A stretch of 64,000 nt of DNA from Aquimarina spongiae (GTDB lineage: Bacteria > Bacteroidota > Bacteroidia > Flavobacteriales > Flavobacteriaceae). The stretch lies in contig NZ_FQYP01000001.1 of NCBI RefSeq assembly GCF_900141785.1, positions 806,001 through 870,000 on the forward strand. Reading direction: 5' to 3'. A program made the position numbers and the translations under genes. Positions 58,651 to 64,000 of the stretch are shown here, in pieces; position 1 is the stretch's first letter; the number at the start of each line of letters is the position of its first letter. The notes under the pieces are model-generated. The model did not search any database and was not told where the DNA came from. It saw nothing but the letters and a program-made list of their open reading frames with translations.

Positions 58651-61044
58651 TTAAAACTGAATTTTCAAACTTTTAGAGGTTGAAGAATCCCATTGTACAT
58701 CAACACTCAATGTATTATCCTCACTATTCCATACACCGGTTAATGAAGTACCATCCAAAGTGATAGATTTTGGATTCGAAGCTATATTATGAAGTATCAT
58801 ATGAATATTTCTTTCACTTGACGTATATCCAGTTCCTTTTTCTGCTTTGAAATCAATACTAAGGTTATCTCCAGAATAAGAACTAGTAAATTTTAAAAGC
58901 TCATACTTACCTTTTTCAAAAGCACCAGGAGTCACTCCATCATCGTCATAGAGCTTTCCTTTTGCGGTGCTCACCAAATCATCATGATAATAATGCAAAA
59001 TTAGATTTTTGGTGCTGTATAGCTCTGTAGTTTGCACGGGCTTAATCATAGGAATAAATGCACCGGCCTTTACAAAAACAGGAATATGGTCTTCTGCCAC
59101 TTCTGCTGTTTTATAGCTGCCTCCTTCATACTTTTTTCCTGTGAAAAAATCATACCAGTTGGTTCCCTTAGGAAACGGAACATCCATCGCTGCAATACCA
59201 GGTTTGATTACCGGGGAAACCAAAAAGTTATCTCCCCACATATAGGTAAAACTCAATTCACTAAACTCTTTGTTATCATCCTCAAAAAATAAAGGACGCA
59301 TCAATGGGATTCCGGTTTGATTATTATCAAAAGCTATCGTATAGTTGTAAGGTAGCAAACTATAGCGTAGTTCTACGCTCTTTTTTGCCAAAGCCTTGGT
59401 TTTCTTGTCATGAAAAACAGGCTCTGGTGCAATATGCTCTTGTGCATGGGGTCTAAAAATAGGTTGAAACACCCCATATTGTAACCAACGTGTATATAAC
59501 TCTGGATCGAAGACTTCTCCTCCTGCAAATCCTCCCAGATCAGAATGCATATACCCTAATCCTTGCATACCCATAGACAAAGCTATTTCGGTTTGCGGTT
59601 GCAACCCACCCCAGCTTCGGTTTACATCTCCAGACCAAGGAATCATTCCAAAACGTTGAGATCCCGAATACCCTGCTCGCATTAAAATAAATGGTCTTTG
59701 ATCAGCAAAATCCTTTTGATACCCTTCCTGTATCAAACGTGCCCAATCGTGTCCATAGATATTATGTACTTCATCAGCACTTCCTGCAGCATGTTGAAGA
59801 TCTGAAGGATGTACTTCTGGTTCTCCTAAATCTCCCCACCATCCGGCAATACCATATTCTTTAGTATACTCTTTATAGATATTCCAGAACCATTCTTTTC
59901 CTTTCGGATCATAGATATCTACAATTCCTGTATTTCCGAAGTAAAAATCATATCGATAAGGATTCCCTATAGAATCTTTCCCCAAAACTCCTTCTTTTAC
60001 AGCTTCTTCCCACTTTTTTGAGGTCGATAATATAAATGGCTCTGTGATCAAAATAGTTTTTACTCCTTTTGATTTAAAATCATTAATCATTTGTTTAGGA
60101 TCTGGGAATGAATCCGTTAGGAATTCTAAATTCCCCATATGACCTTTGATATCTTTTCCAAACCAATAAATATCCAAAATTACCGCATCCAAAGGAATAC
60201 TATCCTTTTTAAATCTATCCACTGTGGTAGTTGTTTCTTCTTGTGAATGGTATCCAAAACGGCTCGCAAAATTACCAAATGCCCATCTTGGTGGTAGTGG
60301 TTGCTTACCTGTCAAATCGGTATACGCATCCATCATATCTTTCCAATCTTCACCTGCTATTACTTGGTATGTATTTCTACCACTTATAGTTTCGTACTGT
60401 AACGCATTGTCTTTCTTACTGTCAATATCCAAAAATCCAATTGGTGCATTATCAAAATGAACAGCATATACTTTTGAAGACAACACCAAAGGCATAGTAT
60501 AATTCATTAACTCCGAATAGTTTTCATATCCGTAATGTGCTCTATTGTATAACTGCAGACGTTTCCCTCTTCTATTCATCCCCACAGCTCTGGATCCTGC
60601 ACCATAAATCACTTCATCTTTATCCAATGTAAAATCCAGAATTTCTGTAGAATCCGTTTTTATATACCCTTCTCTCTCTGCGATTAGTGGTTTTCCTTTG
60701 TACAAATATGAAATTCCAAAAGGTTCTTTAGTAATTTCGACCACTATACCAGGCGTAGCATAAGTAATATTCTCCTTGGTTTCCTTAATACTTGCTTTGG
60801 TATTGGGAGTTAACACTACTGCATGAGACTCCTTATTAATCGACTCTCCCTCGGGGATAAAAGAAGTCTCTACAATCTTATCAGAATATGGAGTAATAAT
60901 GTATTTGCCATTATCTTTATACACCTCGATATAAGTCCCTTTATCTTTAAAACCTCGATAAGGACCGTCATATGTCTTTTTACAAGAGGTTAGTACTACA
61001 CCAAAAGATAGCGCGAATAGTAGAGAAAAATACGAAAGCTTCAT
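58651..61044 (-). CDS. GH31 alpha-glucosidase lipoprotein
   Basis: 797 residues. Lipoprotein signal MKLSYFSLLFALSFGVVLTSC with Cys21. The GH31 barrel has the nucleophile Asp405 in GWWGDLGEPEVH and the acid/base Asp473 in WSGDVNRSWGG, plus DAVILDIYWFGKD and RYSLLPYNYTIAF; a C-terminal beta-sandwich follows (IPVFVKAGAFIPMI and TAKGKLYDDDGVTPG). The enzyme probably trims terminal alpha-glucosyl residues from glycans at the outer surface. No SusC/SusD or other carbohydrate enzymes adjacent. Confidence 0.95.
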   Translation of the reverse strand: MKLSYFSLLFALSFGVVLTSCKKTYDGPYRGFKDKGTYIEVYKDNGKYIITPYSDKIVETSFIPEGESINKESHAVVLTPNTKASIKETKENITYATPGIVVEITKEPFGISYLYKGKPLIAEREGYIKTDSTEILDFTLDKDEVIYGAGSRAVGMNRRGKRLQLYNRAHYGYENYSELMNYTMPLVLSSKVYAVHFDNAPIGFLDIDSKKDNALQYETISGRNTYQVIAGEDWKDMMDAYTDLTGKQPLPPRWAFGNFASRFGYHSQEETTTTVDRFKKDSIPLDAVILDIYWFGKDIKGHMGNLEFLTDSFPDPKQMINDFKSKGVKTILITEPFILSTSKKWEEAVKEGVLGKDSIGNPYRYDFYFGNTGIVDIYDPKGKEWFWNIYKEYTKEYGIAGWWGDLGEPEVHPSDLQHAAGSADEVHNIYGHDWARLIQEGYQKDFADQRPFILMRAGYSGSQRFGMIPWSGDVNRSWGGLQPQTEIALSMGMQGLGYMHSDLGGFAGGEVFDPELYTRWLQYGVFQPIFRPHAQEHIAPEPVFHDKKTKALAKKSVELRYSLLPYNYTIAFDNNQTGIPLMRPLFFEDDNKEFSELSFTYMWGDNFLVSPVIKPGIAAMDVPFPKGTNWYDFFTGKKYEGGSYKTAEVAEDHIPVFVKAGAFIPMIKPVQTTELYSTKNLILHYYHDDLVSTAKGKLYDDDGVTPGAFEKGKYELLKFTSSYSGDNLSIDFKAEKGTGYTSSERNIHMILHNIASNPKSITLDGTSLTGVWNSEDNTLSVDVQWDSSTSKSLKIQF

Positions 61045-61350: not shown

Positions 61351-64000
61351 ATGAAACGTTATTACCAAATCATCGTTACCGCCAAACGTATGGTACTTGC
61401 AAGTACCATATACCTGGGATGCACTCAATCATTAATAGCTCAGGAACAGACCCCTATCTCCTCTCCAGATAAGGAAGAGAAATCAACTTTTAATATCCCT
61501 CTAGATAATTTTTATAGTAAGAAAATTTACCCAAAAGGAACTGGTAGGTCCTTTTTCAACTTTGGAGACATTTTGGTAGCCAGGGCTGTACTACCAGCTG
61601 CTAGTTTTTCTGAAGGCCCCACCTCAGGACAGTACATCGGTTCAGGATTAATCAATCAACAACCAGTTCCTTTTTTGAATAAACAACCCATTCAAGGTTT
61701 CTCCTCTGTATTAAACAACTACGATGGTACTTTCACAGCGCTATCCGATAATGGATTTGGAAGTATTGAGAACTCTGCAGACTATAATCTTCGTCTTTAC
61801 AGAATTCAACCGAAATTCAAGGCTTTTGTAGGAGGTGGAGAAGGTACCGTAGATATTGTAGACTTTATTGAACTGAAGGATCCCAATGGTCTTATTCCTT
61901 TTGCTATTGTCAATCATTTCTCTGACACCAGAGTACTTACCGGAGCAGATTTTGATATTGAATCCATTCAAAGAACTACTAATGGTGATTATTGGATTGG
62001 TGATGAGTTTGGTCCTTTTCTACTCCACTTTGATCGCAACGGGGTGTTATTAGACCCTCCTTTTGCTCTTCCAGATTTTGAAAATCCAGGAAAAGAACTT
62101 CGTGCACCACAGACTCCTTTTAATGAAGAGTTTAGCGCCCTTAGAGTGATGAATGCCATGCGAGCGCATGCAGTTGCCAATGGAAGCAAAGCGCCAGTAA
62201 TGTCACCATGGTTTGTTATGCTTGATGATCAAAATACGAACACAGTGGTAGGAAGCAGAACAAACCCTCCTTCAGGATTGCAGCAAGCATCTAGCGAATT
62301 ATTCAATGTTTCTTCTCTAAACAGAGCCGGTCATGATGTAGTGGTGTATACCGTGAATGATCTGGAAAACATGAACCTTCTTCTGGAACTTGGTGTACAG
62401 GGAATCATCTCTGATCGACCCGATTTACTTTTGGAAGCTGTACAAAGCTTTGATAAAGACAATGACGGAAAAGCCGATTTCATGGATGAAGATGGACTCA
62501 TCGATGTAACCCTATTCGACGCACAAGGTCATAGAGGTGCAAGAAACCTAAGGCCAGAAAATACAATCCCATCAATGGAAGCGGCACTCGATTACTTGAT
62601 GCCTACTTTGGAAACAGATTGCGGAATTACATTAGATGGTGTACCTATCCTAGATCACGATCCACATATTGAAGCCGCAAAAACCAGAAAAGCAGATGGG
62701 ACACCTTATGAATTTGAAGACGAAGTACTGGTAAAAGATCTTACCCTAAATGAAATCCAGACCACCTTTATCGCTGATAAAGTTCTATCAGGAAGACCAG
62801 CACAAACTAACGATCTTGCACTTTCTCCTGTATCGGTTGCATTTGCAAATCAAAACGGATTTATCGATCCTTATATCATGCCTTCTCTTCAGCAAATGTT
62901 TGATTTTGTTGAGTTTTACATCGAATATTATAAGAACGGACCCGGAGCATCAGATCCCGAAGCAGAGCAACGTTGGAAAAACGCTTCTAAGGTTCGTTTT
63001 AATATAGAAACCAAAATTAATCCAAGAACCGATACTGATGATCGTGGAGATGTATTTGCAGAAAGAACTGTAGATCCCGAAACCTTTACCAAAGCGGTTG
63101 CTGATGTCATCGTAGTCAACAATCTTACCGATCGTGCAGATATTCAAAGCTTTGATTTTAGAACATTATTGATTGCGCACAAATTGTATCCAGAAATTCG
63201 TACGGTGTGTCTACTTGGAGATTTCCCAAAAGTGGGAACTGCCGGAGACGGGACAAATTTACAGGATCAAAACGGACAAAACACTCCTTGGTTAGCTGGA
63301 ATGTACTGGCCATACAGGAGTACACAACTTACTAATCCTATCCGTGTTAAAGGAAGCGGTGGTTTTGAAGGAATGGCATTAACCACAGATGGCCAAAAGT
63401 TATTACCATTATTAGAAAAAACCCTTGTTGGATCAGAAAACAACAACTTATTAATTCACGAATTTGATTTAAATAGTAAAAGCTATACTGGTAAACAATT
63501 TCAGTATCCACTAGATGAAAAAGCTTCTGCAATTGGAGATTTTGTTATGTTCAGCAACAATAGAGGGCTTATTATCGAAAGAGACGGTTCTCAAGGCGAT
63601 CTTAATGGGTATAAAGCCATTTATGAAGTGCAAATTGATCAAGATGAAGAGTTAGCACAAAAAAGACTTAACGTAGATCTATTAGACATTAATGATATTC
63701 GCAGGTTATCACTACCTGGTCTAGAAGGAGACGTAGGTATTGGTAGAGATTTTGCTTTCCCTTTTGTAACTATAGAAAGTGTCGTGGTATTTAATCCTTT
63801 CCTGATTGGAGTTCTTAATGATAACAATTACCCATTTAGTATTGGACGCCACGTTGGGACTGGATTACCAGATGATAATGAGTTTATATTAGTATGGCTG
63901 GATCAACCTCTGGGAAGGCCATGGCGATCTTCTCGACCTAATAATAGGGTAACTCAAAATACCATCAAGGTATATCCAAATACTTTTAACAATCAGGTTA
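61351..64000 (+). CDS. Secreted phytase-like esterase with inserted, apparently permuted GDPD domain (partial)
   Basis: 883 codons are visible from the ATG at 61351 and the frame is still open at the edge. The N-terminus MKRYYQIIVTAKRMVLASTI and a hydrophobic stretch ending LIAQ form a signal peptide. Residues about 60-225 and 655-850 match the two halves of the esterase-like phytase domain: LSDNGFGS, GDYWIGDEFGPFLLHFDRN, then GGFEGMALTTDGQKLLPL and GDFVMFSNNRGLIIERD. Between them lies glycerophosphodiester phosphodiesterase sequence: VVVYTVNDLENMN and GIISDRPD (about 330-357), a Ca-binding-like DKDNDGKADFMDEDG linker (371-386), then GHRGARNLRPENT (393-405), LETDCGITLDGVPILDHDPH and FNIETK. 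The order is that of a circular permutation. The last residues, IKVYPNTFNN, look like the beginning of a type IX secretion tail. Confidence 0.85.
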   Translation, partial: MKRYYQIIVTAKRMVLASTIYLGCTQSLIAQEQTPISSPDKEEKSTFNIPLDNFYSKKIYPKGTGRSFFNFGDILVARAVLPAASFSEGPTSGQYIGSGLINQQPVPFLNKQPIQGFSSVLNNYDGTFTALSDNGFGSIENSADYNLRLYRIQPKFKAFVGGGEGTVDIVDFIELKDPNGLIPFAIVNHFSDTRVLTGADFDIESIQRTTNGDYWIGDEFGPFLLHFDRNGVLLDPPFALPDFENPGKELRAPQTPFNEEFSALRVMNAMRAHAVANGSKAPVMSPWFVMLDDQNTNTVVGSRTNPPSGLQQASSELFNVSSLNRAGHDVVVYTVNDLENMNLLLELGVQGIISDRPDLLLEAVQSFDKDNDGKADFMDEDGLIDVTLFDAQGHRGARNLRPENTIPSMEAALDYLMPTLETDCGITLDGVPILDHDPHIEAAKTRKADGTPYEFEDEVLVKDLTLNEIQTTFIADKVLSGRPAQTNDLALSPVSVAFANQNGFIDPYIMPSLQQMFDFVEFYIEYYKNGPGASDPEAEQRWKNASKVRFNIETKINPRTDTDDRGDVFAERTVDPETFTKAVADVIVVNNLTDRADIQSFDFRTLLIAHKLYPEIRTVCLLGDFPKVGTAGDGTNLQDQNGQNTPWLAGMYWPYRSTQLTNPIRVKGSGGFEGMALTTDGQKLLPLLEKTLVGSENNNLLIHEFDLNSKSYTGKQFQYPLDEKASAIGDFVMFSNNRGLIIERDGSQGDLNGYKAIYEVQIDQDEELAQKRLNVDLLDINDIRRLSLPGLEGDVGIGRDFAFPFVTIESVVVFNPFLIGVLNDNNYPFSIGRHVGTGLPDDNEFILVWLDQPLGRPWRSSRPNNRVTQNTIKVYPNTFNNQV

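What the first reader, a model, noticed from the sequence alone, without database searches (positions are those of the whole stretch)
61351..64000. GDPD phosphodiesterase apparently circularly permuted and inserted into a phytase-like esterase domain
Seen: the motifs of a GDPD TIM barrel occur in swapped order. The C-terminal signature (VYTVND, then GIISDRPD, about 330-357) comes first, followed by a Ca-type Asp-rich linker and then the N-terminal signature (GHRG, PENT, LETD, DHD, FNIETK, about 393-560). Both lie between the two halves of an esterase-like phytase domain. Each GDPD signature occurs once, so two complete domains are unlikely. Inference: a nested, circularly permuted phosphodiesterase within a phosphatase/esterase, perhaps a secreted enzyme that processes phosphodiesters to phosphate in one polypeptide. 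A type IX secretion tail appears to begin at the window edge.
Basis: partly seen in the sequence, partly recalled or inferred. Interest (0 to 1): 0.7.

Follow-up and report, generated by a model that had tools for sequence, protein, structure and literature searches.

The report
Circularly permuted phosphodiesterase inside a propeller
A secreted marine-bacterial protein carries an intact-looking phosphodiester-cleaving enzyme whose two ends are swapped in order and which sits inside a loop of a second, propeller-shaped domain; the same swapped enzyme also exists on its own in Acidobacteriota, so this is an apparently undescribed natural rearrangement of a very common enzyme fold rather than a sequencing accident.

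Summary
One open frame (window 61351 to about 64224, 957 aa, Aquimarina) encodes: signal peptide, first half of a phytase-like (PF13449) propeller, GDPD C-terminal piece (PF03009 204-244), Asp-rich linker, GDPD N-terminal piece (PF03009 1-104 onward), second half of the propeller, T9SS tail. Each GDPD piece occurs once. Aligning the insert with a head-to-tail doubled normal GDPD raises the score by 27-75 (control means 0-1). AlphaFold2 of the insert (pTM 0.84) gives a single eight-stranded barrel: 170 of 184 residues of an idealised TIM barrel align in sequence order across both pieces (2.6 A). The order is conserved in 39 Aquimarina genomes, Tenacibaculum, a Cyclobacteriaceae genome and Sulfidibacter (Acidobacteriota), so it is no misassembly. 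New here: 26 of 396 Acidobacteriota genomes carry the permuted GDPD without the propeller (16 read in full), and permuted forms make one tree group (100/100). Deinococcus has a different (GlpQ-type), unpermuted GDPD in the same propeller loop, so that loop acquired a GDPD twice. Catalytic residues are invariant in all 37 permuted proteins aligned. Phosphodiesterase activity is very likely; a two-step path to phosphate is untested. No paper describing a permuted GDPD was found.

The parts
61351..64000 (+). Coding sequence, 957 aa in all; runs on past the window to the equivalent of 64224
61351..61455 (+). Probable signal peptide (MKRYYQII...SLIAQ)
   Evidence: read from the sequence; consistent with the T9SS tail; not run through a signal-peptide predictor
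61573..62100 (+). First half of the phytase-like propeller (residues about 75-250)
   Evidence: PF13449 split match; tblastn pieces from residue 75; model matches the 3qqz YjiK propeller, Z 18.2
62101..62118 (+). Propeller loop motif R-A/S-P-Q-N/T-P just before the insert; also present in relatives without an insert
62119..62436 (+). GDPD C-terminal piece placed first: helix 6, strand 7, helix 7, strand 8, helix 8 (VYTVND, GIISDRPD)
   Evidence: PF03009 204-244, PF13653, AF2
62437..62520 (+). Linker that joins the native C- and N-termini; Asp-rich, EF-hand-like (DKDNDGKADFMDED at 62452-62493)
   Evidence: PF00036 only E 0.37, so calcium binding is an inference
62521..63219 (+). GDPD N-terminal piece placed second: strands 1 to 6 with the catalytic residues (H394, E421, D423, H436, E553, K555)
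   Evidence: PF03009 1-104, 3ch0 match, invariance
63220..63318 (+). Loop found only in the fused form (DGTNLQDQNG.NTPWLAG.YWPYR), nearly invariant in Aquimarina, Cyclobacteriaceae and Sulfidibacter, low-confidence in the model
63346..63921 (+). Second half of the phytase-like propeller (residues about 666-857)
   Evidence: PF13449 117-284 at 658-827
63970..64000 (+). Start of the T9SS type A sorting domain (residues 874-957, mostly beyond the window)
   Evidence: TIGR04183 35.2 bits; PF18962 28 bits

Best explanation
It is an active-looking glycerophosphodiester phosphodiesterase whose TIM barrel is circularly permuted. The native termini are joined by a 24-37-residue linker and the new termini lie in the loop between strand 6 and helix 6. 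In Aquimarina and a few other bacteria the permuted barrel is inserted in a loop of a phytase-like propeller, and in Aquimarina the protein is exported by the T9SS. Shown: motif order, single barrel (by prediction), conserved order across two phyla, a stand-alone permuted form, one tree group, intact catalytic residues, T9SS tail. Inferred from TIM-barrel topology: because the new termini are on the catalytic face, the propeller sits near the mouth of the active site. Inferred from the family: it cleaves glycerophosphodiesters (deacylated phospholipids) outside the cell to sn-glycerol-3-phosphate plus an alcohol with the usual two-histidine, metal-dependent chemistry, the propeller binding or presenting substrate, or dephosphorylating the product.
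For: Split and swapped PF03009 matches. Doubled-target alignment gain. AF2 of the insert: pTM 0.84, barrel elements mostly at pLDDT about 90. The idealised barrel DeNovoTIM13-SB (7p12) aligns in order over model residues 15-374 (170 of 184 residues, 2.6 A, Z 11.6), and DERA aldolases over 8-365, while true GDPDs align mainly with their first ~200 residues to model ~137-380: what one permuted barrel predicts. Same order in 39 Aquimarina genomes, the others at 70-81% identity, and in L050, L053 and L059. Stand-alone permuted proteins in Acidobacteriota, colinear with the insert. One tree group for all permuted rows, 100/100. Catalytic residues invariant in 37 of 37; roles of the two histidines and the metal site from PMC4926365. 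Separate GlpQ-type insertion in the same loop in Deinococcus speaks for a functional link between the two domains.
Against: No activity was measured. AF2 used only 21 alignment rows (58-87% identical), the whole-protein model has pTM 0.66, so the relative placing of propeller and barrel is not established, and coordinates could not be inspected. The phytase-like family has no proven activity that I could find. No phosphate genes lie next to the Aquimarina gene or the stand-alone genes.
Confidence: 0.82

Rival explanations
1. Two incomplete GDPD remnants of a tandem duplication, decayed independently and not forming one barrel (a pseudo-enzyme).
For: A tandem duplication followed by loss of the outer halves is the usual route to a permuted protein, so remnants are expected at some stage.
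Against: All catalytic and metal residues are invariant in 37 proteins; the order is conserved across Aquimarina and two phyla with long open frames; AF2 closes one barrel; stand-alone proteins consist of exactly this unit.
Confidence: 0.04
2. Misassembly or local rearrangement of this genome.
For: Only the swapped motif order itself would suggest it.
Against: Same order at 70-81% identity in 38 further Aquimarina genomes and in separately sequenced genomes of other groups; same neighbouring gene in 22 of 25 loci.
Confidence: 0.005
3. The barrel is permuted and folded but does not mainly act on glycerophosphodiesters: it acts on another phosphodiester (lysophospholipid, cyclic phosphate, glycan-linked phosphate) or mainly binds.
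For: The GDPD superfamily includes lysophospholipase D and other specificities (PMC4926365; 7ym0 and 8ghi). The permuted group has its own insertions (QxND...LSPVxVAF...) and a long stem in the tree.
Against: Complete HR-EN-ExD-HD motif and E-x-K, which however does not fix the substrate.
Confidence: 0.25
4. The propeller is an active phosphatase and the two domains form a relay from phosphodiester to free phosphate.
For: Pfam's family name for PF13449; the propeller alone lies between alkaline phosphatase and extracellular nuclease genes in Gloeothece; GDPDs entered the same propeller loop twice.
Against: No characterised member found; closest solved fold is the YjiK propeller, which proves no activity.
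Confidence: 0.3

Closest known systems
GDPD family PF03009, Cytophaga hutchinsonii GDPD 3ch0
   Same: All active-site motifs; best sequence match (E 1.2e-15) and best fold match (Z 18.5)
   Different: 3ch0 has strands 1 to 8 in order; here strands 7 and 8 come first and the native ends are joined by a linker
Phytase-like (PF13449) proteins without an insert (Acinetobacter, Thermus, Gloeothece)
   Same: Both propeller halves, up to 48% identity; DEFGP...RSPQNP...GFEG loop
   Different: That loop is 60-72 aa there and 461-467 aa here
Deinococcus phytase-like/GDPD fusions (L063-L065)
   Same: GDPD inserted in the same propeller loop
   Different: GlpQ-type GDPD in native order (PF03009 1-244 contiguous, PRK11143), placed before, not after, the RSPQNP motif
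Stand-alone permuted GDPDs of Acidobacteriota (L096-L111)
   Same: Same permutation, 41-48% identity, same extra segments, same catalytic residues
   Different: No propeller, no T9SS tail, no Asp-rich linker, no DGTNLQDQNG...WPYR loop

Membership tests
GDPD (PF03009) | HR-(X)n-EN-(X)n-ExD-(X)n-HD motif with two catalytic histidines | tested here: met
   H394-R395, E403-N404, E421/D423, H436-D437 invariant in 37 of 37 (motif from PMC4926365)
GDPD (PF03009) | Score over the family cut-off | tested here: met
   84 bits against 23.6, in two partial swapped stretches
GDPD (PF03009) | Single contiguous domain, N- to C-terminal order of strands 1 to 8 | tested here: not met
   Profile 204-244 precedes 1-104; doubled-target test. 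Hence filed as a permuted variant of GDPD, not as a canonical member
GDPD (PF03009) | One TIM barrel | tested here: met
   Predicted only: pTM 0.84, full in-order match to idealised barrel 7p12
GDPD (PF03009) | Metal-dependent hydrolysis of glycerophosphodiesters | not testable with these tools
   Needs an enzyme assay
Phytase-like (PF13449) | Score over the family cut-off | tested here: met
   150.4 bits against 27.6, split in two stretches
Phytase-like (PF13449) | Esterase or phosphatase activity implied by the name | not testable with these tools
   No characterised member found in the library
T9SS type A cargo | C-terminal sorting domain TIGR04183 | tested here: met
   35.2 bits against 23, residues 874-957
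T9SS type A cargo | N-terminal signal peptide | tested here: inconclusive
   Hydrophobic N-terminus ending IAQ read by eye; no predictor run

The most novel reading that the evidence does not exclude
A natural family of circularly permuted GDPDs arose once, lives both alone and inside a propeller, and permutation moved the attachment point from the bottom of the barrel (as in Deinococcus) to the active-site mouth, so that the propeller gates or receives the product of the phosphodiesterase: a one-chain two-step enzyme made possible by the permutation.
Probability: 0.25. Interest if true: 0.8.

Novelty: new variant of a known kind. Interest (0 to 1): 0.62.

Why it matters
Natural circular permutations of TIM barrels are few, and here three states can be compared inside one enzyme family: native order alone, permuted alone, and permuted as an insert, next to a separate native-order insert in the same propeller loop. 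That makes a direct test possible of whether permutation repositions a partner domain relative to an active site. Practically, automatic annotation reports such proteins with two broken GDPD fragments; they should be read as one intact enzyme.

Tried and rejected
Two separate GDPD domains: rejected, each signature occurs once and each HMM stretch is partial. Misassembly: rejected. Viral origin: the viral collection gave no relative; the two phage-labelled hits are an Acinetobacter phytase-like gene without insert. Tandem GDPD-GDPD intermediate in a propeller: not seen in about 800 Bacteroidota and 396 Acidobacteriota genomes, but the searches were not designed to exhaust this. An ordinary GDPD with the fused-only loop: none found in plasmids or in the Bacteroidota GDPDs examined. 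Phosphate operon context: none. A published permuted GDPD: none found; the library is open-access only, so absence is weak evidence. Foldseek and VIA-align gave sequence-order alignments and do not show a permutation directly, so the idealised barrel was used as a rotation-neutral yardstick.

Full report
What is in the sequence. The window is part of a 5.35 Mb genome (C18:806001-870000), genus Aquimarina by the named relatives. The open frame from 61351 continues beyond the window and gives 957 aa. PF03009 matches twice, profile 204-244 first and 1-104 afterwards, and PF13449 is split around them. The C-terminus is a T9SS type A sorting domain.

Is the permutation real. Aligning residues 241-665 with 18 unpermuted GDPDs and with the same GDPDs doubled head to tail raised the Smith-Waterman score by 27 to 75 in every case; unpermuted GDPDs against doubled ones gained 0 to 1 on average, at most 10. 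This is the classical sign of a circular permutation. The gene is not an accident of this assembly: 39 Aquimarina genomes (own included) carry it nearly full length, and so do Tenacibaculum sp. M341, a Cyclobacteriaceae genome (65%) and Sulfidibacter corallicola (58%; Acidobacteriota). In 22 of the 25 loci, all of them Aquimarina, a relative of the same GH31 gene lies nearby.

Does it close into one barrel. AlphaFold2 of the whole protein gave pLDDT 74, pTM 0.66, with a propeller made of both flanks (3qqz YjiK, Z 18.2) and GDPD matches for 323-587 of the model. The insert alone gave pTM 0.84 with helix 6, strand 7, helix 7, strand 8, helix 8, linker, strand 1 to strand 6 in that order. GDPD structures align mainly with their first about 200 residues to model ~137-380, whereas the idealised TIM barrel 7p12 aligns over its whole length (170 of 184 residues, 2.6 A, Z 11.6) to model 15-374, and aldolases do likewise. 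The pieces therefore form one eight-stranded barrel in the model. No coordinates were inspected and this is a prediction.

A stand-alone permuted family. Searching the phylum of Sulfidibacter found proteins of roughly 370-420 aa that match the insert in the same permuted order and have nothing of the propeller. With a profile of the insert, 26 of 396 Acidobacteriota genomes besides Sulfidibacter have one, one of them two; the 16 proteins read in full mostly begin with an apparent signal peptide, judged by eye. The alignment with the fused form is colinear and shares segments that the examined ordinary GDPDs lack. A tree on sequences put back in native order places all permuted rows on one side of a branch (100/100), with fused (98/76) and stand-alone (100/99) forms as two groups; long branches make the exact position among ordinary GDPDs unsure. 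In Bacteroidota the permuted form is otherwise rare: none in the first draw of 395 genomes beyond the own genome and only the starting genome in the second. The patchy spread across two phyla suggests horizontal transfer; that is inference.

The same loop, twice. In uninserted relatives the propeller loop from DEFGP to GFEG is 60-72 aa. In Deinococcus it is 403-407 aa and holds a complete GlpQ-type GDPD in native order, placed before the RSPQNP motif; in Aquimarina, Cyclobacteriaceae and Sulfidibacter it is 461-467 aa and holds the permuted GDPD, placed after that motif. Different GDPD subfamilies and different positions point to two separate insertions. By TIM-barrel topology (established knowledge) the native ends lie at the bottom of the barrel, while the strand 6/helix 6 loop lies on the catalytic face; so the two architectures should attach the propeller to opposite faces. 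This could not be checked in the model because the placing of the domains is uncertain.

How it probably works. H394 and H436 correspond to the general base/acid histidines and E421, D423 and E553 to the metal site of characterised GDPDs (alignment; roles in PMC4926365; the E553 match rests on the conserved E-x-K motif); all are invariant in 37 of 37 permuted proteins. Of the conserved motifs only strand 8 (YTVND) and the GIISDRPD end come from the displaced piece. I therefore expect metal-dependent hydrolysis of glycerophosphodiesters or related phosphodiesters at the cell surface or outside the cell. What the propeller does is open: substrate capture or a second hydrolytic step. The repeated pairing with two GDPD kinds and the phosphatase/nuclease neighbourhood of the uninserted Gloeothece gene point to phosphorus acquisition; the Aquimarina neighbourhood does not.

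Verdict. Observation confirmed, structural interpretation supported, functional relay untested. New variant of a known kind; no published description was found in an open-access library, which does not prove there is none.

Noticed in passing
L063:1893-4175, L064:1932-4157, L065:1932-4169: Deinococcus plasmids encode a phytase-like propeller with a native-order GlpQ-type GDPD inserted in the same loop.
   Followed up: yes
L096-L111 and L116-L141 (Acidobacteriota): Stand-alone circularly permuted GDPDs, mostly with apparent signal peptides; neighbours in the four loci viewed look like RuvB, RuvX-like or aconitase genes rather than phosphate genes.
   Followed up: partly
window 63220-63318: Loop DGTNLQDQNG.NTPWLAG.YWPYR is nearly invariant in fused proteins of two phyla but low-confidence in the model and absent from stand-alone ones; role unknown.
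   Followed up: partly
L146 (own genome C18:519300-521600): A distant 436-aa phytase-like paralogue without a GDPD insert in the same genome.
   Followed up: partly
L096-L111, first residues after the signal peptide: Stand-alone proteins start with (Q)NP[FYW], resembling the propeller motif SPQNPF that precedes the insert in fused proteins; could be a scar of excision or insertion, or chance.
   Followed up: no
L068 (Gloeothece plasmid): Uninserted phytase-like gene lies between an alkaline phosphatase and an ExeM/NucH nuclease gene.
   Followed up: no
window 58651-61044: GH31-like lipoprotein gene, divergently transcribed, with a relative near the fused gene in all 22 Aquimarina loci examined.
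   Followed up: partly
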